A DNA stretch of 64,000 nt, from contig ML769690.1 in assembly GCA_009733575.1 (NCBI GenBank), positions 1-64,000 on the forward strand, read 5' to 3'. A model generated the notes under the pieces. That model was not told the DNA's origin. It made no database searches and was given only the letters and a program-made list of their open reading frames with translations. Below are positions 14,329 through 34,312 of this stretch, piece by piece. A program made the position numbers and the translations under genes. The DNA is from Gymnopus androsaceus JB14 (Eukaryota; Basidiomycota; Agaricomycetes; Agaricales; Omphalotaceae). Positions within the stretch are counted from its first letter, which is position 1. Each line of letters starts with the position of its first letter.

Positions 14329-15414
14329 GGAAAGAAAATAGTTGCATATGGTTTTATAATCGTACAACCAGACACTTTTCCTATAACAACTCCTTCACCC
14401 CTTACCTCCTCTACTTCCAAAGCAGCCTCAATAAATATCACCAGGACCCGCATACTCGATTCATTTGTGACTTTTCAGTTATTCTGAAAGATGATTATTC
14501 ACACAACTTTTTATATTGTCTGAAAATACACCTGAAGGAAATATTTCACTCAGAATGATTTGACTTGCAATATATAACAAATCATTTACCATTTCAGGAG
14601 CTCAGATATACTATAATTCAGGCCCTTCTTCAGTTTATCTAAATAATGTACTGATATGTATATCTTCACACAACAAGACTGTTTGACTGAATAATCAAAT
14701 TTGAGTGAAATTTTCACTCACAAGTGATTTTTGACATGAAATTTCATAAACTAGTTAGTATTTTCTTTGAGCAGATTTTTTTGCGCTTTTGGTGTGTATG
14801 CTCTGCTACTGTAATCGCCCACTCGAGATTCTCCAAAGCTTCCGGGGCACACTGTGGACTTGGTGCATCAAGCATTGATCCAGATCCCAAGGAACACTTT
14901 AACGCATAACCACATTGCGCAGATGCTTCTGCGCAATGAAGCCTGGGTCCCGGTACCCAGACCAAACTTGAACTGTACCAACCTCTAAGTACATGCAGAA
15001 ATTTAATCTGGGTAATGCCCTCTCTCGTGTGCTCAGAAGAACAGCGCTCTCGATGCGCCGGACTGCTTGCTTTTGTGTTTAATGTGAACGCTGCAAGCCA
15101 AGCAGTCTTGACTGTCTCCCGCAGCATGAGCATTGAGCACCCGCAGCATACGCATAGGCCGTCCGGGTGCTGTGCAGAACCCGACTGTTTCTCAATGGGA
15201 CTGCGCCGATTTACCTAGCTAGCAAACGACTTTTTACCCTTCATTTGCAGCTGGTTCCGAAATCATAGATGTAGAATAGTTTGGATGATCACCCTTCATC
15301 ATTCTGCACTCCACTTTTTGCGCCGATGGCCTCTCATTGGCCAGTAGAGCCGAGAGCTCTTTAAAATTAGGTGCTTGTATTTGTAACAGCACTGTGATTA
15401 CCAAAAACTACCAT
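14329..15414. other. 3' remainder of the exonuclease gene, then unassigned sequence
   Basis: The frame of the preceding gene stays open for about 130 nt after its TGA, suggesting a lost C-terminus. The rest, including a GC-richer patch at 14.8-15.2 kb with a 24-bp palindrome (ATTGCGCAGATGCTTCTGCG... at 14914-14937), contains no gene I can identify. A 129-codon minus frame at 14744-15133 has no recognisable domain. Confidence 0.35.
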
Positions 15415-15490
15415 ATGTACAAACGATATCCGCCTGTTCCTGGCAGTTTGATGCAGGTCAGTAGCGGGGGAGCTTCGGGGCAGCCTTCCT
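15415..15490. repeat. left terminal inverted repeat of the KDZ unit
   Basis: About 76 bp, matching 33690-33615 in inverted orientation. The only clear mismatch inside is in 'agcttCggggcagcct' against 'agcttTggggcagcct'. It lies 101 bp beyond the transposase stop codon. Confidence 0.85.
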
Positions 15491-15590
15491 GGCCTCATAC
15501 TAGGTAGATAGTATGTTATAAAGATGCTCTTAGGTATATTGCAGCAATCAAGACATTGTATTAGGACTGATTATCGAATAAGGCACTTAA

Positions 15591-18500
15591 TTACAGAGAG
15601 TCATTAGCCACTGCTAATGCTGCCTCCGCCCAATCATCTGCCTTGGCCTCTTCATTGTCATCCTCGCTCTCATTGTCCTCATCATCATCCCCCAAATATA
15701 GAGGACGGTCTAACATATTGCCCTCCCCTAGCCCATTGACCGTTTGCCTCCAGAAACCGGCTCCTGGGTGAAGATAACACATATCTGATGGCTTGAAGCC
15801 CACTAGCTTCTGGATTGAGTTGAGTTGCATGCAATGAACTACGTTGAACCTCCCTCTTTCATTCCCATAACATTGTATCTGGTAGGCTAGAGCAGGATTG
15901 CTGGTATGGACCTTCCTTGCCACGGCCGGGATATACTCCTCCTCCCCATTCATATAGGTCACTAGGCGTTTGATTTCGACATGAAGTTTGTCGATTTTCT
16001 CCCCAGTACGAAGGAGTTTAAAGAGCTCCGAAACTGCTTCACGGACTTTGGGCTTTGCCCATATCTTGTCTCGAACGTCGGAGTGGGTGTCTCGGAGGAA
16101 GTCAAACTCAGATAGATAGGTGTAGTTTAGGACGTCATCCCAGTTAAGGAGTTTTCGGGGAGGACGCAGCTTTGCTGCGGCTTGATTATAGCTTTCCAAA
16201 CCAGAGTGAATGGCCGCCGAACGCTTTTGCATGGTGTGACCTATATGCTAGCGCATTTTGTATCCTATACACATCGAGTTAGAGAAATTCATGAGCATAT
16301 ACCAAGCACATACCAGTCCCCGACACATTCATCCTTGAGAGTTCAAAGATCCTGGCCACGATCAGCCCCTCTAGCTTGTCCAACGCCTTCTGATAGGCTG
16401 CCATAGACACAAGTTCTTCGGCCTTATTCCACTCCTCCGAGCCCCTGCTCCATCTCTGGTCCCTCCGAATCTTAAGCCTCTCTTCCAAAGACTGAACATC
16501 CAGGAGCAGCTTAGCCTCCAGCTCCTGTTCATTAGCCATCTGTCTCTCCAACATGGACAGCGGCTGCTCTTCCTCAGGCCCCGCTCCTAGTGACGCTTGG
16601 CCATAGCTCTGAAACGTTTGTCTTGCTCTCCGGAGTCTCTCCTGGCAGGCCGCAAGCTTGACTAGAGCAAGGTAGTAGGTGGCGCTAAGAGTCTCTGCCT
16701 CGGGAGTGGTTTTTCTCGACTCTAGCTACTCCCTCTCCTCCTCCAGATAGCCATATACCTTCCCAACGTCTACAATCCCAATGAGCTTCAACATCCTTGC
16801 GGTATCCTTTGCTCTGTTCAGGATGCCCAGCGCCTGTTTGTAGTTGGAGTATATAAATTTGGAGAGGTTGGGGTACATCTCAAAGTTGTCCCAGTGGTAA
16901 GCATAGGATGCGATCCACTGATGGCGGCAGAATTGACTCATGTACCGAGTAACGGACGCTAGAGCATTGGAGTGGGAGAAGTAGCGTTCGCAGACCTCCA
17001 GATCCTCGATACCTGCACCATAGATGTATAGCATGAGGAAGGTAAGTTGACAGAGATGATTGTGGGCATATCCGTGTAAAAGTCCGATAAGCATTTGAAG
17101 CTTCTCGTCCTTTGCAAGCTGGTTAAGAGGGCTATGTGAAATCTTGTCGACCATACCACAGGCAATGTTGTATCCTATGGCAAGGGATCCTATAGGTTCT
17201 TCCGGTAACCCTCGATGCCTTCTATCTTCCTGGCAAGCTGCCATAAAATGATGTAGAAGGGCCAAAAGATACTTCGATCTATATGAACATAGACGTCAGA
17301 GGGGCCCAAGCATAGAGAGGTAAATCACTTACTGCTCACCTGTTTTAATCATATCTGCAAATGCCAGAACAAAGGAATGACAACAAAAACCAGCGAATAT
17401 CCTGTTGACATCGAACAATCCAAACAATCATGCTGTCTTACTCTCGTTTAGATTCGACCAATGGTCAGTGCATAAGTTCTTGCTGCCCGTTCCAGTTGGC
17501 ACCCAGTCCACCCATTTTCCCCAGTTCGGCTCATCCCATAAATCAACCTGCACAGGCTGAAGGAAGTAGTCTCCACCTCCAACTCGTGCATCTGGTCTCT
17601 CTTTTGAAGGCCCAAGCAACATTCCATCCTCTGTGCGCTCTCGCTGTTCAACTCGCTTTAAAGAGTTGTTCCCATCGACTGCTGCCATGAATTGAATTGG
17701 CTGTGGTGTTTCGCCCTCTACTTCGTACTGACAGGGCGGACAAGCGTTTAGCATTTGCCAGTTGGGTGTGTTACGGCCCAGAGCGTCGAGAACTCGCTGC
17801 CTAACCGGCTCTGTGAGCTGGATGTAGAGATCGTAGGCAGAGGAAAATTGAACCGATAGGTTGTTTTTGAAGTGTACACCCTGTAAGTCACACAGGGCAC
17901 GGATGAAGGGTTGAACGCCAAGCCGTGGGCAGCGCATGAACAAATTATGGTAGAGCTCTACCATCTGCAGAGATACCAAAGACTCATTGACTAGAGGGTT
18001 GAATGGGAGAAAGCCGGAGTGAATATAGCTCGCATTATTTAATCTATCTGACTGGAATACAGGTATTTGGTACGTTGCATGTTCTAAAGCAAAGCATCAG
18101 TAGGATTTATTCGATAAAAGGCTAACGCATACCGTAGGTAGACCAGACCAAGATAACATGCCTTTCTCTTACAACTCCATCTTAAAGTTGGGCACTATTC
18201 CGGCGGTACAGGTGGTCAAGAAATGCCTTGACTAGGTCTGGCATCTCATCGTTCCAGCAATCCTGGTCTACCATGGTCTTCTGTCTTTGGGTTCAGTAAT
18301 CCTTCAATTCACTGACAATGATATTAGAAAGTGATGAAATAAAAACTCTGAGATATCATACAAATTTTGAACAACACCTTTAGCTCGAAAGTAAAGAAGC
18401 TCCTCCTCCTCCTCCTCCTCATCTTCCCACTGATCTCCAGGTTCTACGGTTTGCGTGGGAGCACCTTCAGAACCACTGTTGCTCTGTTCACCATGCCCAT

Positions 18501-18672
18501 CATCAATGTTCATCAGAACCTTGTTATACAGGCAATCATCTTCACCATTTTTGTGTTTTCGTTTGGCTCTCTTCTTGAGCATTTCAGTGGTGGTAACGAT
18601 ACGGTGCGTAGCAAAATCACGGTGAGCCATCTCGATTTTCTGGTTGGGTTGAGAAGGATTGAGGGCTGCCAA
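15591..18672 (-). pseudogene. KDZ (Kyakuja-like) transposase with one amber codon
   Basis: Multi-exon gene reading right to left. The N-terminal exon starts near 18672 with a basic stretch (TEMLKKRAKRKHKN) and an acidic run of about eight Glu. The next exon (17979-17428) has the KDZ signature ACPPCQYEVEGE followed by AAVDGNNSLKR, where Asp is the probable first catalytic residue. The exon 17265-16726 has GYNIACGMVDK, LHGYAHNHLCQ and GAGIEDLEVCERYFS, the conserved second half of the KDZ fold. A coiled-coil-rich segment (16554-16279) and a C-terminal exon (16232-15591) ending in an acidic tail follow. In-frame TAG at 16726-16728 is flanked by continuing KDZ-like sequence and would correspond to a former CAG. 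The likely role is transposition of the surrounding 15.4-33.7 kb unit; this copy may be inactive unless the TAG is spliced out. Confidence 0.85.
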
Positions 18673-18805
18673 TCCAGAAGTGCGTGGTTGGTCATCAACA
18701 TTGTCGTATAGAGGATACGGAGGCTCTCAGGTGAGTTTTTGACATTGCTGAATGTTGGAATTCTTTCTGCGTCCCATCGTTTGCTCAACGAACTGAACAC
18801 CGGCA
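18673..18805. promoter_or_regulatory. short divergent intergenic region between KDZ transposase and TET/JBP gene
   Basis: The two genes are transcribed away from each other from here, with only about 130 bp between the visible coding parts. A shared bidirectional promoter is a reasonable inference; I see no specific operator or TATA signal that I would defend. Confidence 0.35.
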
Positions 18806-20611
18806 GGCAAGTAGTGTGACCGCGATTTAAAATTTTTTTCAATTGGCGCTTAATTACCAAGCCTTCTTTCAATTCACTCCTCCCATTGAATTGGTCGGCA
18901 CTCTCTTCCTTCAAGGACCCTCTCCAGTATGCCAGGTAAGTCAAATTTTTAGAACCTATTTCTTCTGGCTATGGCGACCCCGACACCTGGGGCTGCCATG
19001 CACTTCTGGCAACCCTGACCACTGGGGCAGCCATGTACTTCTGGCAACCCCGACCACTGGGGCAGCCAAAGCACCTTTTTTGTGATATCTACTCAACCAG
19101 CGGCATACTAATTTGATTTTCTCGGCAGCCTCTCCAAGGCTCAAACGGCGGAGCAACTCGAAGAATATGAGCCTCTCAAGCTCAATAACTTTGACATGGC
19201 AGCTCTGGTGCAACCGGCGCAACTACTACAGGCACAATGCCAAGATCATGATGAAGAGCCCCCTCTCCGCAACTACAACCTTCGACCTCACCCCAAGGTC
19301 TTCAAAAGTTACCAAATTATGCCGATTTCAGACCTTGCCAGGCATCAACCCAAACTTAACACCCATGCCTCCAACAAACACCAAAGCAAAAACTACGACG
19401 TGAATTCCAACCGGAGATCTTGTTCATTGGCAAAAAAAACGTAGCTCCGAGCGTGCAACAAGGGCAAAAAATCGAGATAAGATACGTGAAGAGCTGGGTA
19501 CTAACATAAAGGCCTTCCAGAGGCGTCATGTTCAAAAAACGCAGGCGGAATCCATCACAATTAACGTCGACGTTTCTAACATAGCTGCCGAGTCATCTGT
19601 CTGGTGCGGGACAAGGGATGAGCAGATGGAGAAGGAAATGACATTTGAGCAGGTGAAGGGAGTTCAGGGTATGCGGGTAATTGAGTATGACAGAAGGTGC
19701 ATACCCTTCTATTTCAATTACCGCTTATCTAAATAGGCTCTACAGCAAGAACCTTCTCATCCGCGACTCTCAAAATTGTCCGGTGGTTCTGATGGCTAAG
19801 GACAAGGACCCAGTCAACACCCAGCTACTGCTTATCCTGTTCCAGCAGGCCATGGTTGACTTGAACCTTGCCTGTTCTGAGATCTGGCATAGGCGTGGCC
19901 GTTACTTCATGAAGATCTTCGGCATCTCCTTTGGCGGAGGGCAACAACGCCCTGGTAATTTTGCACATACCGCTAATGAGGACGCCGTGTGGGATAGGCT
20001 TCGAAACACGCCTGAAGTCCAAGCCGTTGCCCGACGCGTAGACTGTAGGTGCTTTCTTTCTCCATGAACTGTGGCTCAGCCCTTCCTCCCACTTAGACCT
20101 ACTTGCCTGCTACTTTCCGAAACTCCACAACCTCTACACCAATACTCTCAAGGACCTATGCAATGCGGACAAAAGCCTTTCGCCTAATTTCAAGGACTGC
20201 TGCTTTGCAGCAAGCTCGATTAACCTTGATCACGCCGTCACCGTTTATCACTACGACTGGTGAAACTGGTTGTTTGGGCAGTGTGCCATCAAGAATTTTG
20301 GCACATTCAACTACAAGAAGGGCGGCCACTTGGTGTTATGGGATCTCAAACTCATTATTGAGTTTCCTCCCGGTTGTACTGCACTTCTTCCCTCTGCCAT
20401 GCTTGCTCATTCAAATACCTCTATTGCACAAAGGGAGCATTGCCAACTCATGACGTTCTTCACGGTGTCTGGCCTCCTTCGTTGGAGGCATAATAACTAC
20501 ATGTTGGACAAGGACTTCATAGCAGGTGCAACGAGATCCAAAAGGCAAGCTTGGGAGGAGCACAGGGATAATTTATGGCGCACGGGCCTCGATTTATTTA
20601 GCGACTTGTAG
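18806..20611 (+). CDS. TET/JBP-like 2-oxoglutarate/Fe(II) dioxygenase (probable 5-methylpyrimidine oxygenase)
   Basis: The first visible exon ends at about 18939 and an intron (18940-19129) contains a minisatellite. The next part reads KAQTAEQLEEYEPLKLNN and then EEPPLRNYNLRPHPKV. Further exons give FGISFGGGQQRPGNFAH, typical of fungal TET/JBP proteins, and the double-stranded beta-helix core: a His-x-Asp pair in VYHYDWCN, FGQCAIKNFGTFNYKKGGHL, EFPPGCTALLPSAM, and the distal iron-binding His in LAHSNTSI. These supply the three metal ligands. In related proteins an Arg for 2-oxoglutarate follows shortly after the distal His (within E-x-R); here the aligned position reads REHCQLM, so it may be Cys. 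Such enzymes oxidise methylated bases in DNA; substrate here unknown. No clear stop lies inside the core exon, but the start and some exon joins (near 19444, 19730, 20067) are not resolved, so it may be a partial copy. Confidence 0.75.
18973..19068. repeat. 35-bp minisatellite, about 2.7 units, in a TET/JBP intron
   Basis: The unit is GGCAACCCYGACCACTGGGG followed by 'cagccatgtacttct'. Three copies lie in tandem within the intron between the first two recognised exons of the dioxygenase gene. Confidence 0.75.
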
Positions 20612-21006
20612 TTCTGAATGTTAAAGACATCGTCGTTGCAATATAGACCTTGCTAGACCTTACTTCGAGTGAAAATAAGTATTGGTACATTTTGATCTCA
20701 CACTCTGAAAACAAGATTCGCCAACTTTGACTATTAATTATCATTGTATTTTTTGATAATATCCTTCCACAGTTGGGCAGTAGGTTCTATGGCATGAATA
20801 CTTGATGCTTCATGAGTTTGATAGGTGGGGAGAGTACTGTGCTGAGCCCTAGCTCAAAATAAGTGATTTACGACAAAGTTGAAAAACGATCGGAATTTCA
20901 ATTGTAAATTTGTACACAGGATCAATCTAACTTTTGACCTTGCTTCCACCATCCCACTTTCACCCTCAACAAATACCTTGAAATCAATCTCATATCCACT
21001 CTAAAC
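20612..21006. other. intergenic, nothing recognised
   Basis: AT-rich sequence between the dioxygenase stop and the next start codon; no feature identified. Confidence 0.5.
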
Positions 21007-21457
21007 ATGCCTCGCAAATATACTGAGTCCGCCATATATAAATCAGAGCGCACTCAAGAACAAAAAAAGGCAGACAAATCCCAAAGTCGTCGTTTGGCTA
21101 ATTGTCGATACTGACGCAAGTAAGTCTTTACTTTTAACAGATATTATATTAAATTATTTCTTAAATTATTTCTTACAATCTACACCCTCTTCAGGGTTAA
21201 TCGCAAAGACCCAGAGAAAAGAGCCTTGCAAATTGCAAAGGAAAGGAATAGTATGTCAGAAAGTGAGAAAGCTTTCGCGAAGGAGAAGCAGAAGGTATAT
21301 AATTCAGTCTACTATCTCAGGTATGTCCTCAAATCAATTTCCATTCAATTCATGCCTAAATATAATATGCTATAGGCATCGTGAAGATATCCTCAACAAG
21401 CAAATGAAGAAGCGTGCCCAGTTTGTGAAGTCAATGGCCACGCATTTCATTCACTGA
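21007..21457 (+). pseudogene. small basic Lys/Arg-rich protein
   Basis: ATG 21007 opens MPRKYTESAIYKSERTQEQK, a short highly charged protein. A TGA at 21112-21114 (a possible former CGA) sits immediately before an intron donor. Two introns (about 21118-21194 and 21319-21375, GT/AG borders) join exons reading NRKDPEKRALQIAKERNS and MKKRAQFVKSMATHFIH, stopping at 21457. It has helical, basic composition with no domain I can name; DNA or RNA binding is possible but only inferred. It lies downstream of the dioxygenase in the same orientation within the KDZ unit. Confidence 0.45.
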
Positions 21458-21607
21458 AGATCACCACAGGTCCTATGTTATGAAGCATGGCGAGTCTGCA
21501 TATTGGGCAAGCTATCCTCACCGAAAGGTTGAGTGTTGCAAGTCCTTGACATTCCAAGTCACTGAATGAGGGACTGCTGCCTCCTGAGATTGATCATTAA
21601 TTTAGAT

Positions 21608-21619
21608 ACTCAGTACTAT
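21608..21619. repeat. target-site duplication of the LINE, left copy
   Basis: ACTCAGTACTAT, identical to 28590-28601, immediately followed by the T-rich run (poly(A) on the minus strand) of the LINE. Confidence 0.85.
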
Positions 21620-21953
21620 TTTTTTATTTTTTATTTTTAAATCCTTGTTTATTCGCCGTTGTGCATTAGCATATGATAGCGATCTCCTACTAGTATGTAT
21701 CTATCATACTGGTCAATGGTATAACTGCTCGGGTCTGGATCTTTCAACAACATTAGGCTCCCAGTGGGAGGCCTTGACAGGGCGGGCTCTGTCTAGCCGC
21801 TAGGGCTCAATTAAGCAGTTGTCGTAAATCAGGAATTGTCCGTGCTATAGGTAGTATTGTAGAGAGAGAGAAAGAGAGAGAGAGAAATAGAGAGAGAAAA
21901 GGATGTCATGCATAAAAATTTTTGTCCGCCCATCCTATTTTGCCTGTCCCTCC

Positions 21954-24900
21954 TTATGCATCCTCACCCCATTGGGGTAGCTCCCCTACAATGTGTGTAA
22001 ACCTTCCCATCTCGCTCACGTATCGGAATAAGTCGCCGAGGGTCTGTGGTGTTGTTAGCAATGCGGAGTAGGTGAAGTTCCTGGGTCCTATCTTCCTCCT
22101 CAGTTGTTCTCTCGGGGCTCTGTGCGCTGGGCACTCCATGAGGTAGTGGTAGACCATCTCGGGATGGCGTTTGCAGCATGGGCAGGTCGGGGAGTCAGCT
22201 CAGTGTATTGTGTTCAGGTGTTTTTGCAACGGGGCGTGGCCCGTTCGGAGCTGCGTCAGGATCGAAAATAGTTTCCTTGGTAGCCCCCTCGAGAGCTTCC
22301 AATAGGCGCGGCTAGTGGTGGTGGCTGGGGATGGATTGACTTTCTTAAACTTCCTGTATCTCGGTGATCGTTTCCACATCGAGTCATGGGTCTCCTCCAA
22401 GCGTTTACGGAATGTGCGGATGATGGTGGTTTGACTCCTTGGGAGAGCCTTACGTAGTTGGGTTGGGAGCTTGGCTTTCACACTCGAACGCCCTGTGGCT
22501 GCCCTTTTCGCTTCTTGGTCAGCTCTCTCATTCCCTGGGACTCCTGTGTGTCCTGGGAACCAGCAAATACAGACTGCAGCTTCTCGGTAGGAATCGCGAA
22601 AGTCGAGAAGCAGCTCATGAAAGATATTGAGGAGATAGTGAGATGGGCCTGTGGCTGAGGTGTCTGTAGCAATGATGGAAGAGGTGTTGTCAAGCCATAT
22701 GGATAGCTTTCGAATGTGTTCCTGTTGTTGGCGAGCCTGATGGAGAGCAAGACTGAGTCCTACGCACTCCCCTTTGTAGACCTCATGGTCCTGTTCCGAC
22801 CCCAGCCTGAAGCGTAAAACCCCCTTTTCCCTCTCATTCCTGTACAAAACCAAAGCCGCCCCCACACCCCCTTTGTATCCTGAGCCGTCCGAGAAGCACT
22901 GTACATCCGCATCATCCTCCTCGAGCATCTCGTCTGCTTACTCCTTTCCCTCCGCTACCTTGTCTTGAGGTTCGGATCCCAGCTGGACTCAAATCGGACT
23001 GCACTCTTCTTCTCTATGGCTTTTGGCTTCAGGTCGTACGCGCACATGAGGTCATGTAATGATGAAAGGTGCCAGACTCAATACGTGTTTCTAGCAGCAG
23101 TGGCAACTCGTGAGGCGATTGGGTGGGTATTTGGGAGAGTGGTTAGGCGAGTTGCCACCCTGTAGCCTTGTCATTCTACTTCGAGGTCGAGAGGAAGGAG
23201 TGCTGCGTGTATGTTAAGGATATCTGTCGCTGTAGTCAACATTGCCCCGCTGATCAGGATGGCAGCCTGGCGTTGGATGGAGGTGAGTCGCTGGAGCACT
23301 TGGGTCTTCTTTGCCATTTGACCCTTCCGTCGTTTCTGTTGTGGGGTGAGAGTGACATCCGCAGCGTAGAGCATGCGCGGAATGGCTTTGGCCTTGTAGA
23401 GTTGCCGGATATGCTTTCCCGCCATACTGTCCTTCATTCTCGCAAGCCTCCGGAACTGGACTAACCATCCCTGGCCCTTCTTCACCATCACCGAATGCTG
23501 CTCCTTCCACCGTAGTGCCTTATCCATTGCTGTTCCCAAAAACTTTGCGCTATCCTCCGACTTCACCACTATGTCCCCTATCCTGACTCCCGGTCCCTTT
23601 ATCAAAACTGTCTTTGTTCCCCCTTTCTTCTTCTTTCCTAATACTACTGTCTTTCTTCCCCCTATCTCTACCGTGTCCAAAACTGTCTGTTCTCCTCCTT
23701 TCGCCTTCTCCCTTTTTTGAGTAAAATCTACCAATTTGAATTTGTTGATTCTGAACGAGCAGTTGTGTCTGTTCGCCCATTCCAAAATGCCTCCGTCTCT
23801 TGCCATAAGGTCCATCAAACCCTTGTGTGTTTCCTCCACATTATCCCCCACCTTCATTGCAGCTATGTCGTCCATGAATCCAAAACCTACCTCCTTGTTC
23901 TCTCTCCTAAACGCACCCAAGACCCCCACTGCATAGAGGATGTATCCTATCCCTGCAGCCGGGTCACCTTGGTCTTCCCCTCCGACTATCCTTATTGGTT
24001 CCGAAACAAAGTCGTCGAAGGCCATCCTTGTAGTTCAGTTTGCGTATCTCCTTCCCAGCCAATCCACCAACTCGCACGGGATGCCCAGCACTTGTAATTC
24101 GTGGTAGAGCATTTGTAGGTCAATGCTCGGAAATGCTCCCTTGATGTCCATGTAAAGCACCGACACGACTTCTCCATGCTTCCATGCCTCCTTGATGCTG
24201 TCTACCATCATGTGGATGGAGTTGGTGGTATTCCTGCCAGGTTGTGCTCCGAATTGCTGCGAGGGAAGTAGGCCCGGAATCTCAGCTCAGCGCGTGAGTT
24301 CATCCGCTACGCAAGCATTGAGGGCCCTTGTGTGTCCATGGGATAGGACGATTGGGCGGTGTGCACCGGGAATTCTGTAATCCGGTTTTCCAGGCTTTCT
24401 CAGTACCAACATTTCGATTAGAGCCCAGTCGTCCGGATACACACCTAGGGTGAAAGTGGCCCTATAGATTGGACCAAGATGAGGGACAAGGATGCTGCTG
24501 GTGGCCTTGTAAAGGTCGTTTGGGAACGTGCCTGGTCGCGTGGCCTTGCCGTTCTTCATCTTCCTAAAGGCTGCGGTGATTTGTCGATTGGTTGGTGGTT
24601 CGAATTCCCATGCCAGCGGTGGATAGGTGGGAGCTGCGGGCACGTTTGATGAAGTTGGTGGCAGTGGGAAAAAGCGGTTTTGAAAGCTTCAACCTTGCCA
24701 GCATTATCTCATACCACTCTCTCAGTCCCTCCTTCCTTCACCAATAACTCCGGTATCCTAGCCCTGCCCCCATCCTTTGGCCCAGCTTCAACCATCCGTC
24801 CTATTTCCCACATCGAGTTCCCATTGGCTTCAGACAGAAACTCGACCCACTTCTCCGTTTTCACCCTCTTGATCTCTGCCGACATTGTCTGCCGCGCCCT

Positions 24901-25992
24901 CCAATACTGCTCGTGTACTGGGTGGTCTGCCTGGACTCTCTTCCTGAACGCTTTTCCCGACAGGCTGTCTCGGATCCTTCTCATCTTCTTCAACTCGTCT
25001 GTCCACCATCGCCGTTGCATTGGGCTAGGCTTTATTAAAGGTACTTCCTCTTTTATCACCTCCTCGATTGCCCCGTCTAACTCCTTCAGCCTTGTCCAGA
25101 ATTTCTCCTCGTTCTCAATCTCTTTTGGTGACGCCACCATTCTTAATCTACCCTCCAGCTTCTCCCTGAAGCTATCCCAGTCCACTCTCTTCCAATCTCT
25201 TCTCTCTTGCTGGTCCACCAGCTCTACCCCTACATCAATTATCATCTCTATTGGAAAGTGGTCTGTGTTGGTCGGCTGTCGATGTGGAATCGCGTCGCAT
25301 TTGATAATGCGTTCGAGAATTTGCTTCGTTCAGAATACATTGTCGACTTGGGTGTAATTCCTCGTGGCAAAGGATTTGAGGGTTGGGATGGACTCCGGGA
25401 GCGCCATAAAGAGTCCTTGTTCAGCAATTGCTGCAAGGAGGCGCTGTGCGGCGTCCAGGTTCCGTGCGGTGAACAGGTGGTGGTTTCGTGGTTTGTCCCA
25501 CATTGGGTGGTGGCAGTTGAAATCTCCCAGCCATACTGTATTAAGCGGTCGTCGAGGTACGTTCCTTGCCTCATCCGTGTTGTTCCACTTTCTAATGCTG
25601 TTTACAGCCTCATCGTTGTCGCCATCGCTATAAATATTGAAGAGCCGTATAGTCCCAAAATCCCCTTCCATCTGGATTGCTGTTACGTCGGGGTTATCTA
25701 TCGGTATCTGGGTCCAGCTCCCTGTGGGTATCTGTGCGCTGATCATCAAGACCAAGCGCGTGCACTTCTCCCTGAAGTCTCTAAAATGATTAGTTGGGTA
25801 TATCGTTGTATAGTGGAAAAGTGCTCTGGTCATGCCCTGGAAGTCGATCCACGGCTCCTGAAACGCTATAATGTGGGAGTGGCCCTGATTGCCGTGAAGG
25901 AAGTCATGCATGCTGGTATCGGACTTGCAGGTATTAATCTGGGTGATGGTGAGCCTTGTGTCATTCTGTTCTCGTCTACTGTTGTGACTCAT
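21954..25992 (-). pseudogene. LINE ORF2: endonuclease, reverse transcriptase, RNase H
   Basis: The start ATG (25992-25990) overlaps the ORF1 stop as ATGA. Endonuclease region: ITQINTCKSDTS, IIAFQEPWI, WLGDFNCHHPMWD and QVDNVF, giving the Asn, Glu, Asp and His residues of the APE-type fold. Reverse transcriptase region: KMKNGKATRPGTFPNDL, QFGAQPGRNT, VLYMDIKGAFPSID, GGEDQGDPAAG and the catalytic box GFMDDIAAM. RNase H region: CFSDGSG, GECVGLSLAL, WLDNTSS and WFPGHTGVPGNERADQE, so the D-E-D-D set is complete. A last CCHC-like motif (CPCCKRHPEMVYHYLMECP) lies near 22.15 kb. The reading frame is broken by several stops and shifts (for example near 24709, 24287, 24046 and 22200), so the copy cannot make ORF2 protein. 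Confidence 0.85.
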
Positions 25993-28435
25993 TGGGATCT
26001 ACACTGCAAGGCTCCTTCCTCGTAATCAGCCCAACCTCCACTTTGTTGCTCTGGGATGTCTGGAGATTGACCGCGGTATTGAGAACAGCTGCGGTTTGGT
26101 CCTTTGGGCTGTGCACTCCAGCAGTAACTGTCGATTGTGTGCGGTCTAGCATCAGCTCTATTTGTCAATTGGGTCTGCAATTGGACCTGGGGTTGGGATG
26201 TAAAGGTTGTTCCCCCGCCTTCGCCATGAGCTCCGCCCGCCAGTTTCCCTTTTCTACCACCCTCTGCTACAAAATTCATCCGTTTGTTATACCCCCTTTG
26301 CACCTTAACTCGCCAATCCTTGTTGTAGTCACCGGAGGAGGCATTATCCCTGATCCAGGTGTCCGGGTGGTTCGTTACGAAAAGCCTGTATCCTGCTCCG
26401 GGGTGTCGTCGGGCTCTTTCTTGTATCTTGCGGATGAGTGTCGGGCACCTCCTGTCTGCCGGGGTGTGGCCATGCTGCTTGCAGACAGTGCAGAAGAATC
26501 TGTCGCTCATTGCCAGGCATTCGCTGGTTCGGTGGTCCTCCCCGCATCTACCGCAGACATCCCTTTCCGACTTGAACTCCTTAGCTATGTGTCCATACAG
26601 CTGGCACTTCATGCAGCGCTGTGGATCCTTCTGGTCATGATACCCATACACCCATTTTCCTCCTATCGACAGACCGTACTGGATTGCCTGATTCACTGCC
26701 TCCCTGGTCTTGAAGGAGATGATGGCATGGGCTGTCTTCTGGTGAGTTTTCCTTTTCTCCTCCTTCTTCACCCATCCGATTTCTGCAATGGTCCCGTTCT
26801 CAAGCTCGCTGCTGACCTCGACTCTCGTGTAGGTTTCTGAGCCGATAGGCACATCAACTGGAACGAATCTGGCAAGAACGCTGTACAAGCTGGGACGCGC
26901 TGTTACCGGAGCTCCCCACCACTTGCAGAAACGCTTCAGTCTGTCCCCTTGCTTTAGCCATTGCATTTTGTCAGTTGTCCGCATCACACATATCACTCCC
27001 CTTCCTCGTATCTTCTGCACTGCCACTACCTGGGATGTGCCCTTTGTCTCTCCTTCAGCTTCGAGCAGCATATCCAGAGCGTGCGTTGCCTTCTGGAGCA
27101 GTACTGGCTCCGTCATGTCAATGTCTGTCTCATCCTCCGACCTTAGAACAAATTTCCTGTCATTCATCTGTCCGGCTCTTATAGCCGCGGTGTGTTGTGG
27201 CCGCTGGAGTTGGTGTGCTATATCACTCACCCCCACCCCTGCCATCTGAGCGTATGTCGGTTGGGTTGGGATTTCACCTGGTTTGGTGGGCTGGGCATTG
27301 GCAAGACCCATTTTGAACGTGATAGGGTCAAAAGTGTTTGTTTTGTCCTCCAAGTTTGCAAATTTTTCTGTTAACGTCTCAAGTCTCGTGGATGCATTTC
27401 TGAGTTCTGTAGTTGCCTCATTGACCCAGTCCTTTGTTCCGCCTATCTTCTCCTCTACCTTCTCCACTATTTCCTTCACCAATTTGGCAGTGATAGCTGG
27501 TTGGCCCACTGCCAATTCAGGAGTTTTGCCATCACCTGCACAGTCTCCCATGCCTTTTTCCTTTCGGGCAGGTTCAATGGCGCTAGTGGTATCTGCTTGT
27601 TTGCCAGTTTGAGCAGGTGGTTTGGGAAAGCCTGAAAGTAGTCCTCTCCCTCTGCCATTGTTCTCTGTACTCAGGGTCACATAAAGTGACGGTCCCAGTT
27701 TTGTTTTCACCATATCACCAGAATAAGTAAATATTTTCTCATGGTCCCAGTGGTAGAATTAACAACTCGATGTCTAAAAATCTTTTGACCATACTTACTA
27801 GCTACTCCCGTGAGAATCCTGTTCTATATTAGGGAAAAAGTGGGGATTTTTAGCATAGAATATGAAAAAACTGGTTTTTAGAGATGGGAGGTCATCACCA
27901 TTGGAAAGAGCAGCATCGAAAATGGGGGATACACTTTACCCCACAAGATTTCAATGAAAATTGAGTGAGATATTGGAGGAGCAAACTGGGCACTTACCTG
28001 CATTTTCAGCGGGCCGCCTGCCAGATGCCCCGGTAAGTGCCCACTTTTGTGCTCAAATATCTTGCTCAATTTTCATTGAAATCATACGGGGTAAAATGTA
28101 TCCCCCATTTTTGATGCTGCTCTTTCCAATGGTGATGACCTCCCATCTCTAAAAAAAAGTTTTTCCATATTCTATACTAAAAATCCCCACTTTTTCCCTA
28201 ATATAGAACAAGATTCTCACGGGAGTAGCTAGTAACTATGGTCAAAAAATTCTTGGACATTGAGTTGTTAATTCTACCACTGGGACCATGAGAAAATATT
28301 TATATGTTCTGGTGATATGGTGAAAACAAAACTGGGAGCATCACTTTATGTGACCCCGAGTAGCAGCATTCTCTTTTCCAATTCAGTCTTTTCCTGGTCA
28401 GTTATCTGCTTTGTACTTGATCTTGTGGTCGACAT
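25989..28435 (-). pseudogene. LINE ORF1, nucleic-acid-binding gag-like protein, split by a palindromic MITE
   Basis: The original start appears to be ATG 28435-28433 (MSTTRSSTKQITDQEK), just outside the 691-bp palindrome. Across the empty TA site the frame continues as QRTMAEGEDYFQAFPNHL; a later one-base shift (near 27.5 kb) joins it to the long open frame ending at 25989. That frame contains a coiled-coil segment (IVEKVEEKIGGTKDW) and a cluster of CCHC-type knuckles (CGRCGEDHRTSEC, CTVCKQHGHTPADRRC, and one with the last Cys replaced in CMKCQLYGHIAKEF). An ATG inside the palindrome at 27713 also leads into this frame by chance. The known role of such proteins is to bind the element RNA. Confidence 0.75.
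27670..28360. mobile_element. 691-bp near-perfect palindromic fold-back MITE, TA-flanked
   Basis: The two halves are reverse complements of each other with only scattered mismatches. The outer ends are CTCAGGGTCACATAAAGTGA and its complement; the centre lies near 28015. It is flanked by TA at 27668-27669 and 28361-28362. The ends plus the TA target suit a Stowaway-like Tc1/mariner derivative. It interrupts ORF1 of the LINE: joining the flanks at one TA restores reading frame across the site, so the insertion is later than the LINE. Confidence 0.85.
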
Positions 28436-28589
28436 GTTGGCGTCTGTGGTGTTTTAAGTTTATAGAATGATTCTATCTACTTCTACAATCTGAATACTGG
28501 AGCCCCGAGGCTTCTTTTGCGCCCAACAGCCCTTTTTTGAACTGTGGGAAAAATTGAAGTGGTGACTGTATTAGATCAAGAAGCGTCCC

Positions 28590-28601
28590 ACTCAGTACTA
28601 T
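28590..28601. repeat. target-site duplication of the LINE, right copy
   Basis: ACTCAGTACTAT directly after the 5' end of the LINE, identical to 21608-21619. Confidence 0.85.
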
Positions 28602-28719
28602 AACTTGCTACCTAGTGCTTATATCATTGTAACGAGTATCAGAATATATTCAGCATGAGTATATACATTGAGCAGTCAAAAAGTGTAGGAAAAGCATAGG
28701 TAAAATTGCATTGGTACAA

Positions 28720-29851
28720 TTAGAAAGAGGTGCAGAACTCATGGATCTGCCTCACAAGTCCGTTGGCCTTGAACTCGTTAAATTTCACCCAAGCCCCACC
28801 AATGTCACCTATAAACCTATATGCAACACCACCGCGGAATTGTAAAGTGTTCATGATGAGGCTCTTACGGCTATCGCAGGCCATCGGCTTCACCCCCTCT
28901 ACAACAATAAAGCACTCATCTTCGCTTGACTCTTGCTTGGCAAGAAGCACAGGGATTTTGGAAGTACAAAACTCATTGTAAAATAACTCTGCAAGAGCTC
29001 GAGTAGTAAATGAATGAACAATGTGATGGTGCACGTTGTGGTCGTGAGAAATCCTTTGCTCCCTGCACACCCTTTTGAGTCGACCTAGTTAGATCAGTAT
29101 GGGATTGAAGATGGAGAAAAACAACAAAGTGCTTACCAGGCATAGAAAACCCCATGAATGCCTGCTTTTCCATGATATACGACATAAGCTGGGTATTTAC
29201 TCCCTGGGTAGACGGGGTCCGAACATTCAGTCTGTGTGAGCGTAGTACCTCTTGGGGGACAGCTGAGCAAAGGGCTAACCACAGCCGCGTGATAAGTTGG
29301 GGTAGCAGGAGGTGAGGTGACAATTGCTCGTTGGCGGCTTGGCGTAGCAGGAGGTGAGTTGATGGGAGAGGCATGGGTCGGAGTTTTTGCCCTAGTGAGC
29401 AAGATCTTGCGGAGCTCAGCTAACAATACATGAGTATGTTGGTTTAAAAAATGCAGAAAATGCCTACCTGCACTGACATTCATGCGTTGAAGCATGTCGC
29501 TCACCTCCTCAACATCGCCGTTGACTTTCCGAGTGAGAGAGCTGAGATTCTCCTCAGCTTCCTGCCTAGCCTTCTCATTTTTTAGAAGAGCTTTGGTATC
29601 ACAAGACGTTAATACCATTCATATGATATGCAGGTAGAAAGGAACTTACTCTGTTGCTTCGCAGTAACCTTGTCAGCCTCAGCCATGGCTTGTTCAATGA
29701 GTCTCAAGCGGGACTGGGAAGTGGGAGACCTTGGGGCTTCAGAAAAACAAGTAAAAATTAGCATGGGTAGTTCGGATAGGAATGACTTACAGTTCATAGA
29801 TGATAGAGAGGAATAAAGAGAGATGAACCTCACGTGAACTATTTTGGTCAC
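28720..29851 (-). CDS. coiled-coil protein with RNase H1 N-terminal-like C-terminal region
   Basis: Read right to left through several exons separated by introns of roughly 55-70 nt. An early exon gives SRLRLIEQAMAEADKVTAKQ and the next LLKNEKARQEAEENLSSL, both strongly helical and likely coiled coil. A Pro/Thr/Ser-rich exon (SPPATPTYHAAVVSP) then leads to YPAYVVYHGKAGIHGVFYAW, continued after an intron by HHHIVHSFTTRALAELFYNEF. That pattern (aromatic, VY-x-G-x-xG-V-F-x-W, then a short helix) resembles the small RNase H1 N-terminal/viroplasmin fold, which binds double-stranded RNA or RNA-DNA hybrids. The C-terminal part after it is unassigned. It ends at 28720 just inside the LINE junction and belongs to the KDZ unit by position. 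Start not fixed. Function uncertain. Confidence 0.5.
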
Positions 29852-29973
29852 ACATTATCAAATCGCTCACCGTTTACTTATCCTTTTGACGCAAACTAAG
29901 TATGCAGCAAAATAATTGTACTGGGCTTTGAGAAGAATTTTATGGCCAAGTTCATCCTTTTAATAGCCAGCCA

Positions 29974-32900
29974 ATGGATCACGGTCATGCTCAGGCCGTT
30001 GAATATATTTGCCCACAGGCAACTGAATACAGTGGTAATTTTGGAAATCAATTCCATTCAATGGGTACGTCCGTATCCTCATATTTAATTCATCTGAATT
30101 CAATTCAATTCTTAAAGGACATTCACATTCAAATGCCTCCAATAGTATATCGAATCTTCAGCTTCAACATCCTAGACCAACAGGTATGCCTTCAACATTG
30201 CAGAATAAATAAGACTTTGACACCTTTTCAGGCTACTTGACATACCCAGAATCATCTCCTGCGTATGAACGGTCACACTCAATTGGTAGGCTGCAGTCAT
30301 TTTATTCTTAAATGATCTATAGATTTAAACAAGCTACAGGTGCTCAGTATACGGGCGTTCCAGCTGGTAATTTCACGCGTCCCTCATCTTCTCTCTCTCG
30401 AAATGCTCTGCAATCCCCATATACTAACTCGCCTCAATCAGCAGTTTCTGCTAACGGGGTAAATCTGAACCACCAAGGCAGGCATCCGTTGCCCTTCATG
30501 GGTTATCAGTCTCCTGTTTTTTCTCCGGCTCATTCCTCCACTCCTTCTCGGCCATCTTCTCAACCTCCAGAGAGAGGATTGATGCTTCTTCCCTCCGCAG
30601 CTCAGAATGTACCTCCCCAGAGCCCAGCAGTACTCTCTCAACTGAAGACTCATGCATCGATGGTGAGGTGTTCCGAGAACAACCAACAACGCCTGCCCAT
30701 CTATGTGCCATTTAATCCAACCTATGTGGTTGATGCTAGGGGTTTAATGGAGGAGGAGGTACAGGCCAAGGCTCAGGCGTCATTTCAATGGGCTCAAGAT
30801 GAAAAAGAGCAATCTCAACCTATGGATTCCTCATTTCTTCATCGAAACGCACCACCATCTATGTCTAATCAAGGTATGGCTGCCGTTTCATCTCTACTTA
30901 GCAGGCCTGTTCCTCCACAATCAACTCTGCAAAACTTCCAGCTTGAACTTCTACCTCTCAGACTTCCCTCTATACAGCAACAACCTCAGTGTCAGGTTAG
31001 TCCCGCTCCTGTCGAGGAGCCCGCTCGCATCCATGCAATGAGTGGGCGGTCTTCTCCTGATCAGGTTACTCCTGGGCCAACTCGTATCTACAGAGGGTCT
31101 TCTCATCAGGCTACTCCCGGTCCAACTCGCATCTACGGAGAGTCTTCTCCGTCAGCCTCCGTGCCACCATCTCCTTCAGCTACTCACATTGCTCCATATG
31201 GCAGAGATGTGTCTGGGGCCAAGCAGGGTGGCTCAAGTGAACAGGTGCCGGTTGTTCAACCTAAAATGGGCACAGGAGAATGCCAGGTCAAAGTTTGCAC
31301 CAACGATACAGCTTTTAGCAACACTATACGCGCACTCACTGAACATATCAACAATGAGGTGAAGAGGATTGCTGCAGAGCATAAGAAGTCCCTTCTCACC
31401 GTCAAAAAGCTTATGGGAGTACATCAAAGGTTTAGAGAAAAGAAATCCGCCAGCCTTTACAATGCTGTAATCCACAAAAAAGCGCAAGAGCTTCATCATA
31501 AGTATTTTATTCATCAACTATTTATCTATTTAGCTAATAGCATAACAGTGCAAGGGAAATGTCTTGGACCTCGTTTAGCAGATTGACACAAAGCTGTAGT
31601 GGACAATGAAGACCTACAGGAGATCCTTCAAAACCCGGACAGCGAGGAGGCTAAGGAGGCCTTGGATGATCTTAGGGAGTATCAGGAGGCAAAATTCAAG
31701 GGCGCTCGAGCTAGCGCCAAAGCAAATGATAACGATATCATAAAGACATGGGGCAAAATTGCCACTACTGTAAGATGACAATCTCATATCCATGAGCTGC
31801 ATTCTGACAATGATTTTACAGGCTCAAAATCTATCTCACCAGACCAGCGCCGCAACATTTGGTTTTGTGTGCAGCTCGAAAGCAGGGCAGAATGTTACTC
31901 GACAATTCGTCGGTAGTGGGCCCATTGAAGCCTTCCTAATGGCCAAGTTTGGTATGACAGGCGCTGAACTCATTGAGTCAGCTGAATCCTACCTCATTTA
32001 CACCTCAGCTGGACGGACGGCGACTGGATTGGGTGTAAAGAAGATGCGAAGGGAGATTGTAAAGATTATAAGGTAGAGAGCATCCAAGCTCCAGCAAGGT
32101 CAGCTGACTTTGTCACATGGCTGTCACATACCTATATATGGTGAAAATCACCTCGAAAATAGAATGAACATTATTCCACTCATCATGAAGCTAATTCCTT
32201 CCATTCAACACTTTATATACTGTATAAATGTCTGAAAAATAAACTGGCAGTAATTTGGATAAAATCTGAGAGAGGAGTTATCAGTTTAGCGTAAGAAGCA
32301 CTGTTTGGGTAACTCTTCAATCAAAATTACATATGTGCTCAAAGTCTTGGGTGATACACCCTTTTAAGTACATTTTCCAGGGTTGAATGAAGCAGATTTG
32401 TGAGGCAGTACCTACTTGTTTTTTGAGAGAATTATCTATGGAATTTCACCATATTAAGGAGTCACATGGAGGTCAGCTGACCTTGCTTGAGCTTGGATGC
32501 TCTCTACCTTATTGGAAGGCCTTCGTAAGTCCTTGCTTAGTACCTATGCTTGCTCTCATATACTAATGGCTACATTCCTGTAGGTGAATTATCAAAGAAC
32601 AAAAAGCTAGGCATGGAGTATGACCACTACGAGGTCCTCATTGTCAAAGAGTATGGGGTCAAGCTAATGGGGTGGCCCGATGCTGTCAACTTCTCTAGCC
32701 CTTACAACCTCAATGCCTCCAAGGTCATCAAGCTTTACCATGCAGTCCACAGCAAAGAATGCCGGTGGAAAAAGCTGGATGGGCGAGAGCTCCATGCTGT
32801 CAAGAGAGATATCGACGCGCCCATCAAAAGTGGAGATTTAGCGATACCGGAGCGACAGTGTCAAGGGGGGAAGCAACGATTAGCGGAGGATGAGGATGGC

Positions 32901-33443
32901 AAAAGTGAAAGGAAGAGGCGCTGGAAGAGCAGCAGCAAGTCAACGCGGAGCTCCAGCAAAGGGAAAGAGAGAGATTTGGATAAACGGGTTTATGGTAAAG
33001 GGAAGGGGAATGAGTCAGAAGGTTGGAAAGAGAGGAGGAAGCGAGTCGGGAAGAAGGTGGCCACTGAAAGCAACGTTGAGGTTGGTAGCGAGCTTGAGGG
33101 GCCGGTTCAACGTCGAGAGGAGATGGCAGAGGCAGGAAAAGGGAAGCAGCGCCCATGGCCAAGGCTTATACACAAGCCTTCCGGCATTCAGGTTGTTGGA
33201 AGGACAATACTGAGCGTTGATGAGGGGGAGGGGAATGATGACGATGGGAAGGGACAGGATGATGATGATGATGATGATGAGGACCAGCTGGATGATGATG
33301 ATGAGGAGGGTGAGGACGAGTTGTCTGACAGTATCAACCTTTCCGAGATTGACCACAGGGATGACTACCTCGATGACAACTTTGATTTGTTGGGTGCTGA
33401 GGGTGCCGATGAACCGGATGATGAATCGGATGACTGGCTTTAG
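29974..33443 (+). pseudogene. large uncharacterised fungal-family protein, exon split by a MITE
   Basis: ATG 29974 opens small exons with good GT-AG borders, then a long exon (from about 30340) of a Pro/Ser/Gln-rich, probably disordered region with a tandem segment (GPTRIYRGSSHQ/GPTRIYGESSPS). The conserved part starts near 31290: a helical segment (RFREKKSASLYNAVIHKK), an acidic helix (LQEILQNPDSEEAKEALDDL), FGFVCSSKAGQ, GSGPIEAFLMAKFGM, and after the MITE MEYDHYEVLIVKEYGVKLMG and CRWKKLDGRELH. The C-terminus is Lys/Arg-rich, then strongly Asp/Glu-rich. I recognise this arrangement as a recurrent uncharacterised family in mushrooms; no enzymatic motif is visible. TGA at 31584-31586 interrupts the frame, and the 439-bp MITE lies in an exon. 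Last gene of the KDZ unit, reading towards its right end. Confidence 0.6.
32071..32509. mobile_element. 439-bp MITE with about 38-bp inverted ends, TA-flanked, inside an exon
   Basis: The left end AGGTAGAGAGCATCCAAGCT continues as 'ccagcaaggtcagctgac'; the right end is its complement with an indel. TA lies at 32069-32070 and 32510-32511. The interior is AT-rich and non-coding. Deleting the element and one TA joins GTAAAGATTATA to TTGGAAGGCCTTCGT, restoring an open frame VKIILEGLR that runs into a canonical intron donor (gtaagt). Confidence 0.85.
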
Positions 33444-33614
33444 TTGTGGTAATACTGTAGTGTAGCTTCTTGTAAATTCAGACTTATTCTTGCTTGTAAC
33501 CAGTAATATATACTCCCTTTAATACAATGACTCCGATGAGCTCTAATGTGACTGGAACTGAGTAGTACACATGAATATTGTTAAGATACATGGTATAGAA
33601 TACTCCCTGAGGAC

Positions 33615-33690
33615 GCAGAGGCTGCCCCAAAGCTCCCCCGCTACTGACCTGCATCAAACTGCCAGGAACAGGCGGATATCGTTTGTACAT
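33615..33690. repeat. right terminal inverted repeat of the KDZ unit
   Basis: Reverse complement of 15415-15490. It lies about 170 bp after the stop codon of the large gene at 33443. Confidence 0.85.
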
Positions 33691-34312
33691 CAATGTTTGA
33701 TTGGTACATCAAACGTTTCTAGGTAAGGCATCAATTGGTCATAACAGGTGCAATTTATACAAGGTTTGTTGAGGCAAGCTCCAGTCGACGAGTCATGAGG
33801 ATGAGTTAGTAAGCCTGACCTTGAACTCTAAAGGTAAATCAAAGGTAAATCAAAACTGTCTTCTTGCCATGACTCGTCGACTTCCATTTGAACCTGCCGA
33901 CAAAACACTCACCCTCCCTGGGGAGTCTGGAGTCAGCATAACCTTAGATATGTAAGCTCCTTTCCGCACTTCTTTGCTGCACAATTCAAGTAAAGTGATA
34001 TAGCACAGGTGACTATGCCAAGGAAATACTTGCTCTAGCCAAAGTCTGTGGCGTGAGAAAACACAATGCCACGTAATCCCTTCTGGCTTTGCGAATCTAT
34101 TCTCGAGATCAGTCTCAGTGGAAGTGGGTCCCATTTCTTTTTTCACATGCTCCGCCACACCTGATTTCCTGCATGCAGAAACTCTAAGACAAACCAGCGG
34201 AAATCCGAACTCAAACATCCAGTGTGCAAATTGCAGCAAGTCAGCACCAAAGATGTAGAAGCATGGGTAGGCAGGCACTCTCATTTTTAGTTCTTCCTCT
34301 AAATTTTCCCAG
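33691..34312. other. intergenic; one unassigned minus reading frame
   Basis: A minus-strand open frame of 158 codons (34326-33850) is unbroken but has no domain I recognise; its start overlaps the next plus-strand gene. Short inverted words 'gacgagtcat'/'atgactcgtcgac' occur at 33787 and 33868. Confidence 0.3.

What the first reader, a model, noticed from the sequence alone, without database searches (positions are those of the whole stretch)
15415..33690. A KDZ transposon that appears to carry a TET/JBP dioxygenase and three further genes
Seen: 76-bp inverted repeats with about one mismatch bracket a KDZ transposase, a divergent TET/JBP-like gene, a small basic protein, a coiled-coil protein with RNase H1-N-like end, and a large uncharacterised protein; the outermost genes both read outward and stop 100-170 bp from the repeats. 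Known: fungal TET/JBP families are expanded and linked with KDZ transposases. Inference: all five genes form one mobile cargo set, in which a DNA base-modifying enzyme may affect silencing, target choice or excision of the element. The three accessory genes have no assigned role.
Basis: partly seen in the sequence, partly recalled or inferred. Interest (0 to 1): 0.9.

Follow-up and report, generated by a model that had tools for sequence, protein, structure and literature searches.

The report
Decayed five-gene mushroom transposon with TET
This is a broken copy of a jumping-gene family in a mushroom that carries five genes, one related to enzymes that oxidise methylated DNA; sister copies show that the five genes belong and move together, which turns a suspected package into one that can be tested.

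Summary
The finding is real and its main inference holds. The genome is almost certainly Gymnopus androsaceus JB14. The repeats at 15415-15486 and 33619-33690 are 72 bp with one mismatch and enclose KDZ transposase, TET/JBP-like, small basic, RNase-H1-N-like and large genes.

A diverged copy (C330) keeps all five in the same order. C106 (11 kb) has them between terminal repeats identical over 126 bp, with an 8-bp target duplication, so the set moves as a unit. All five genes show purifying selection in the exon pieces tested; the small gene's case is weakest.

Corrections. The true right end is 33750. The left repeat lacks its outer 60 bp. A LINE lies inside, unreported, and a 440-bp insert interrupts the large gene. 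This copy is broken. TET is not obligatory: 3 of 9 repeat-bracketed elements have it, against 9 KDZ and 8 large.

TET-bearing KDZ transposons are published. What looks new is the long-repeat, 8-bp-duplication, five-gene architecture and a TET scoring below the Pfam cut-off and not of the HxE type. Its role is untested. Copies differ mainly at CpG sites, so the elements look methylated, TET-lacking ones too.

The parts
15415..15497 (+). left inverted repeat; inner part only, outer ~60 bp missing
   Evidence: 83 nt at 93% to 33608-33690; core 72 bp with one mismatch; missing outer part not found to the left, best local score 13 against shuffled mean 13.5
   Evidence: C330 homology reaches window 33751; C76 2.3-kb element ends match window 33651-33750, with 8-bp duplication TCTAATAT
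15591..18729 (-). KDZ transposase gene, several exons, five in-frame stops in the aligned pieces where C330 has none (some may be exon-edge effects; the last exon was not in that comparison)
   Evidence: PF18758 at 3.4e-32; dN/dS 0.13 against C330
19133..20611 (+). divergent TET/JBP-like dioxygenase gene, one internal stop, active-site Arg replaced by Cys
   Evidence: homologs with invariant HxD, H and R; PF12851 sub-threshold in homologs and no match for the C330 protein at E<=1; dN/dS 0.11
21007..21430 (+). small basic protein gene, in three short exon-like pieces, one in-frame stop
   Evidence: dN/dS 0.18, 95% 0.07-0.39; relatives mostly lie downstream of TET on the same strand
22200..27758 (-). 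nested LINE-type retrotransposon, frames broken; not part of the transposon
   Evidence: RNase_H 5.5e-08 and Exo_endo_phos_2 7.7e-08; absent from the same place in C330
27668..28362 (.). palindrome, two 331-nt arms at 92%, over the 5' end of the LINE
   Evidence: pair I1
28723..29749 (-). coiled-coil protein gene with RNase H1 N-terminal-like end
   Evidence: Cauli_VI sub-threshold (0.11 and 0.092; 0.0011 in one of five homologs); dN/dS 0.25
30312..33443 (+). large protein gene, acidic C-terminus, conserved GWP-containing region, one in-frame stop and an insert
   Evidence: 13 Lentinula homologs, best 51% over 100% of the query; dN/dS 0.26
32071..32510 (.). 440-bp MITE-like insert with 41-bp inverted repeats inside the large gene; empty in C330
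   Evidence: pair I3 (arms 32068-32108 and 32472-32512); C330 contiguous at 43610/43611

Best explanation
The window holds a broken, nested copy of a multi-gene KDZ cut-and-paste transposon family. Its sister copies have long terminal repeats that begin CACCTG and 8-bp target duplications (shown). That the KDZ protein is the transposase acting on those ends follows from the known family (not tested here). The other four genes are element genes kept by selection in the element's lineage (shown for the pieces tested). Their roles are inferred: TET, with the small basic protein that usually follows it, oxidises methyl-CpG on the element's own DNA long enough for the genes to be expressed and the DNA to be cut; the RNase-H1-N-like and large proteins act as nucleic-acid or chromatin partners of the transposase. 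Shown: anatomy, recurrence, duplications, selection, CpG-biased change. Inferred: enzyme activity, methylation itself, any effect on silencing or transposition.
For: Second copy C330 with the five genes in the same order, 68-79% DNA identity in pieces over 100 bp. C106: both terminal repeats, AGCGAATT on both sides, all five genes in the same order and orientation. C65 also has all five. The C106 repeat has 40 scored matches genome-wide. 8-bp duplications in 6 of the 10 elements whose ends I read (C106, C187, C560, C342, C555, C76). dN/dS, window v C330: 0.13, 0.11, 0.18, 0.25, 0.26; shifted frames 0.89-1.62. C106 v C65: 0.08, 0.11, 0.30, 0.19, large not estimable (dS saturated); small interval 0.09-0.67; shifted frames 0.70-3.4. 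TET loci with a listed KDZ match within 8 kb: 42 of 86, against about 2.6% under uniform placement. CpG-type changes C106 v C544: 189 of 266 substitutions, rate 0.216 against 0.011 elsewhere.
Against: No significant TET in 6 of 9 elements with paired repeats, and 4 of those 6 (C187, C342, C560, C555) have target duplications, so either they moved without it or lost it later. Excess CpG change is seen in TET-bearing and TET-lacking repeat pairs alike (8 of 9; C65 none), so no lasting protection is visible. The abstract of PMC8889193 links oxidised methylcytosine to silencing of transposable elements, not escape. In Cryptococcus, mobile KDZ elements are mostly unmethylated (PMC12810828, passages), so TET is not needed there. 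No duplication was seen for C225 and C227; C65 and C393 have a damaged left end. Pfam cut-offs for TET and RNase H1-N are not reached. No structure was obtained (job unfinished).
Confidence: 0.7

Rival explanations
1. TET and the small gene are a dispensable passenger cassette. The core transposon is KDZ plus the large gene, with the RNase-H1-N-like gene; TET gives no strong advantage to the element.
For: Of 9 elements with paired repeats, KDZ is in 9, large in 8, RNase-H1-N-like in 5, small in 4, TET in 3. C225 keeps only what looks like a TET C-terminal remnant.
Against: TET dN/dS is about 0.11 in two separate pairs, close to the transposase (0.13, 0.08). Three of the six TET-lacking elements are short (3.9-6.5 kb) and look like internal deletions that could be mobilised in trans.
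Confidence: 0.22
2. The inverted repeats enclose unrelated genes by nesting or segmental duplication; there is no five-gene element.
For: The window element does contain two unrelated insertions and its own repeat was found at few places.
Against: C330, C106 and C65 repeat the order and orientation of all five genes; C106 has a target duplication.
Confidence: 0.02
3. The TET protein modifies host or target DNA (target choice, excision) rather than shielding the element from silencing.
For: Nothing direct. Target duplications differ in sequence.
Against: Nothing direct; published maps in two other Agaricales find oxidised methylcytosine enriched on transposable elements (PMC8889193, passages; PMC12730594, main text).
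Confidence: 0.1

Closest known systems
TET+ Kyakuja and Zisupton transposons of Agaricomycetes (Kojima 2025, PMC12730594; Iyer et al. 2014, not held, recalled)
   Same: KDZ transposase and a TET/JBP gene in one DNA transposon; TET with the HxD motif, as in their AG type.
   Different: The two Laccaria Kyakuja families there have 7-bp duplications, CA..TG ends and no terminal repeats; here 8-bp duplications, CA..TG ends and repeats identical over 126 bp and recognisable over about 200 (C106). A word search of that main text for RNase H, third protein, additional protein, accessory and gene order showed no RNase-H1-N-like or large gene for KDZ elements; its supplement was not open to me.
Cryptococcus neoformans KDZ1, KDZ2, KDZ3 (PMC12810828, passages)
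   Same: About 9-11 kb, terminal repeats of 139-241 bp, 8-bp duplications (4-8 bp for KDZ2 and KDZ3), KDZ plus CxC1; shown to move in culture.
   Different: The only occurrence of TET in that text is in a reference title. Here the CxC1 and CxC3 matches are sub-threshold. Its KDZ copies are mostly unmethylated.
CcTET of Coprinopsis cinerea (AG type)
   Same: HxD...H...R dioxygenase motif (the Arg recalled).
   Different: A profile of 18 relatives of the present TET finds no TET structure at E up to 10, and Pfam TET scores stay below the cut-off. I did not check that CcTET is in that copy.

Membership tests
KDZ transposon | KDZ transposase domain (PF18758) | tested here: met
   3.4e-32, 112 bits, cut-off 26.6
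KDZ transposon | terminal inverted repeats | tested here: met
   window inner repeat; C106 and others; the window's left outer part is lost
KDZ transposon | target-site duplication | tested here: met
   8 bp in 6 of 10 relatives read; not testable for the window copy, whose left end is missing
Kyakuja (as described for two Laccaria families in Kojima 2025) | 7-bp duplication and no terminal repeats | tested here: not met
   8 bp and long repeats; transposase phylogeny not tested
Zisupton | 8-bp duplication with terminal repeats | tested here: met
   structural criterion only, and Dileera also makes 8-bp duplications (PMC12730594), so it does not decide between them
Zisupton | transposase groups with Zisupton in a tree | not tested
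   no reference sequences available
TET/JBP dioxygenase | HxD, distal His and Arg | tested here: met
   invariant in 18 homologs; complete in C330, C544 and C65; in the window copy the Arg is lost and a stop intervenes; C106 and C227 also lack the Arg
TET/JBP dioxygenase | Pfam Tet_JBP above curated cut-off | tested here: not met
   C330 protein: no match at E<=1; homologs: best 18.6 bits against 34.9, 8 of 18 at E<=0.05; one weak match in the genome
PE-type TET (Kojima 2025) | HxE in place of HxD | tested here: not met
   HxD in all 18 of A1 and in the copies read
AG-type TET (Kojima 2025) | groups with CcTET in a tree | not tested
   no reference sequences available; profile search of solved structures gave no TET
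RNase H1 N-terminal (Cauli_VI) protein | PF01693 above cut-off | tested here: not met
   13.2 and 13.5 bits against 21; 0.0011 in 1 of 5 homologs
TET/JBP dioxygenase | oxidation of methylcytosine | not testable with these tools
   no assay

The most novel reading that the evidence does not exclude
The element carries a self-directed desilencing machine: a fourth transposon TET type (HxD, but not close to CcTET) paired with a small basic protein, and an RNase-H1-N-like protein that binds RNA:DNA hybrids and so brings the oxidase or transposase to copies being transcribed.
Probability: 0.1. Interest if true: 0.85.

Novelty: new variant of a known kind. Interest (0 to 1): 0.45.

Why it matters
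It turns a loose association, TET genes near KDZ transposases, into a defined mobile unit with known ends, duplications and five selected genes, in a mushroom with at least 139 listed KDZ places and 86 TET loci (my merging of the lists). Two uncharacterised proteins are shown to belong to it. CpG-biased change suggests that the elements are methylated, which makes the anti-silencing idea testable with methylation maps, and TET-lacking sister elements give a natural control.

Tried and rejected
Rejected: chance repeats; the idea that the RNase-H1-N-like gene is the LINE's RNase H (different place and domain); 33690 as terminus; Kyakuja as subfamily on structural grounds.

Iyer 2014 could not be read, so whether its accessory proteins include these genes is open; I recall that its abstract mentions a divergent HMG protein.

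Searches for prior description: (listings). Of PMC12730594 I read main-text parts 1-5 of 7 (the last two not opened), the figure legends and one find; of PMC12810828, PMC8290104, PMC8889193 and PMC7641404 passages only.
Full report
OBSERVATION. The inverted repeats are real: 15415-15497 and 33608-33690, 83 nt at 93%, with a core of 72 bp and one mismatch. Between them lie, in order, KDZ transposase (-), TET/JBP-like (+), small basic (+), RNase-H1-N-like (-) and large (+) genes. The finding does not mention a nested LINE at 22200-27758, a palindrome over its 5' end and a MITE-like insert at about 32071-32510.

SECOND COPY. A search with the left repeat found three places: the two in the window and one at C330:44686-44747. 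C330 is collinear with the window over all five genes at 68-79% in pieces over 100 bp, in the same order and strands. C330 lacks the LINE and the MITE-like insert and has its own insertions elsewhere; its left repeat was not found. The outer 100 bp, window 33651-33750, match both ends of a 2.3-kb element at C76:217100-219393, which has 8-bp duplications TCTAATAT, starts CACCTG and has no match to the element's genes. So the true right end is 33750. The left repeat lacks its outer 60 bp; the window to the left holds no such sequence above chance. Window 15248-15411 matches dispersed repeats; that such a repeat replaced the outer part is inference.

PROOF OF MOBILITY. C106 holds an element of 10,978 bp as cut, ends TCACCTG..CAGGTGA, with repeats identical over 126 bp, 96% over 145 and 85% over 220, and AGCGAATT on both sides of CACCTG..CAGGTG. 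Translated comparison with the window finds KDZ, TET, small, RNase-H1-N-like and large in the same order and orientation. C544 is a 96% copy of 8.2 kb of it, without the KDZ end. The C106 repeat has 40 scored matches. Nine contigs have it paired and inward-facing: C106, C227, C65, C560, C555, C225, C187, C342 and C393; I left out C127 (about 35 kb apart) and C129 (same strand), and did not examine the unpaired ones. Of these nine, KDZ is in 9 (part only in some), large in 8, RNase-H1-N-like in 5, small in 4, TET in 3; all five in 2, C106 and C65. C227 lacks most of the RNase-H1-N-like gene. C225 keeps an apparent C-terminal TET remnant. Duplications of 8 bp: C106, C187 (ATCTCTGT), C560 (ACAATCAC), C342 (CAGGTTTG), C555 (TCCACAGG) and C76; none seen for C225 and C227; C65 and C393 have a damaged left end.

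SELECTION. Exon pieces were picked by me from ungapped translated matches, so they favour well-conserved parts; the last KDZ exon was left out. Window against C330 (719, 463, 83, 263 and 570 codons): dN/dS KDZ 0.128, TET 0.107 (dS 2.0, near saturation), small 0.182 (0.07-0.39), RNase-H1-N-like 0.253, large 0.259; shifted frames 0.89-1.62. C106 against C65 (678, 284, 39, 159 and 211 codons): 0.078, 0.111, 0.295 (0.09-0.67), 0.185; the large gene has dN 0.115 with dS saturated; shifted frames 0.70-3.44. For the small gene the intervals of true and shifted frames overlap, so its case is the weakest. The window copy carries stops in KDZ (5 in the pieces; some may be exon-edge effects), TET (1 internal), small (1) and large (1); C330 has one in large. 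The window's TET has lost the active-site Arg, as have C106 and C227; C330, C544 and C65 keep the motif. dN/dS here measures the shared past, not present activity.

TET. 20 homologs, all in genera that I know as Agaricomycetes; 18 aligned (P0007 and P0020 left out) with invariant H, D, H, R. Pfam Tet_JBP gives no match at E<=1 for the C330 protein; in homologs it reaches at best 18.6 bits against 34.9, 8 of 18 at E<=0.05. The model finds one weak place in the genome, so the 86 TET loci (94 matches, merged by me; 91 of 132 candidates scored) lie far from it. Kojima describes AG (CcTET-like) and PE (HxE) types in Agaricomycetes; HxD excludes PE as defined, and the profile finds no solved TET. 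I do not claim a new type: no tree was made and the structure job did not finish.

LINKAGE. 42 of 86 TET loci have a listed KDZ match within 8 kb, against about 2.6% under uniform placement. Small-gene matches fall on 13 contigs at E<=1, five of them only at E above 0.05 (C90, C31, C330, C667, C600); on 10 of the 13 a TET match lies on the same strand nearby (within about 11 kb; C330 has an insertion between), and C225 has the remnant. The window's own small gene was not found by that C106 query.

OTHER SPECIES. Large-gene homologs: 13 of 14 in Lentinula, one from the window's own contig (only the 8000 best candidates were scored). In L. raphanica one gene model (P0038) joins a TET N-terminal-like region (27%, 1e-24, convincing up to about residue 212) to the large protein (46%, 3e-93), so both lie together there. 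No Lentinula protein appeared in the TET search, which neither shows an intact TET there nor rules one out. RNase-H1-N-like homologs: five, one from this genome and four on unnamed short contigs of 1-3.4 kb. Genomic context in other species could not be read.

METHYLATION TRACE. C106 against C544: 266 substitutions in 8137 bp, 249 transitions, 189 of CpG type; 0.216 per CpG position against 0.0106 elsewhere. Between the two terminal repeats of single elements, 8 of 9 pairs (C76 included, C393 not) show a higher CpG than other rate, TET-bearing or not, on small numbers; C65 shows none. The elements therefore look methylated, and TET does not visibly protect old copies. Methylation itself was not measured.

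PRIOR ART. TET-bearing KDZ transposons are established (PMC12730594). Long-repeat KDZ elements of 9-11 kb with 8-bp duplications are known and mobile in Cryptococcus, mostly unmethylated (PMC12810828, passages). KDZ and Plavaka terminal repeats were characterised in Marasmius oreades (PMC8290104, passages). In Laccaria and Coprinopsis oxidised methylcytosine lies on transposable elements, and the abstract links it to silencing (PMC8889193, passages, one of them from the abstract). The listings showed me no description of this five-gene set, but Iyer 2014 and the Kojima supplement were not readable.

Noticed in passing
22200-27758: LINE-type retrotransposon nested in the transposon, frames broken; other genome copies 66-74% identical apart from one 70-bp piece.
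   Followed up: partly
27668-28362: Two 331-nt inverted arms with a 33-nt spacer over the LINE 5' end; origin unexplained.
   Followed up: no
32071-32510: MITE-like insert with 41-bp inverted repeats in the large gene; the site is empty in C330.
   Followed up: partly
L054 (C76:217100-219393): 2.3-kb non-autonomous element with 590-bp inverted repeats at 96% and 8-bp duplications, sharing the window's end sequence and none of its genes.
   Followed up: partly
L046-L049 (C106 against C544): About 20-fold excess of CpG transitions between two copies, larger than I would expect from ordinary deamination; a CpG-directed mutation process is possible.
   Followed up: partly
15248-15411: Dispersed repeat abutting the truncated left terminal repeat.
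   Followed up: partly
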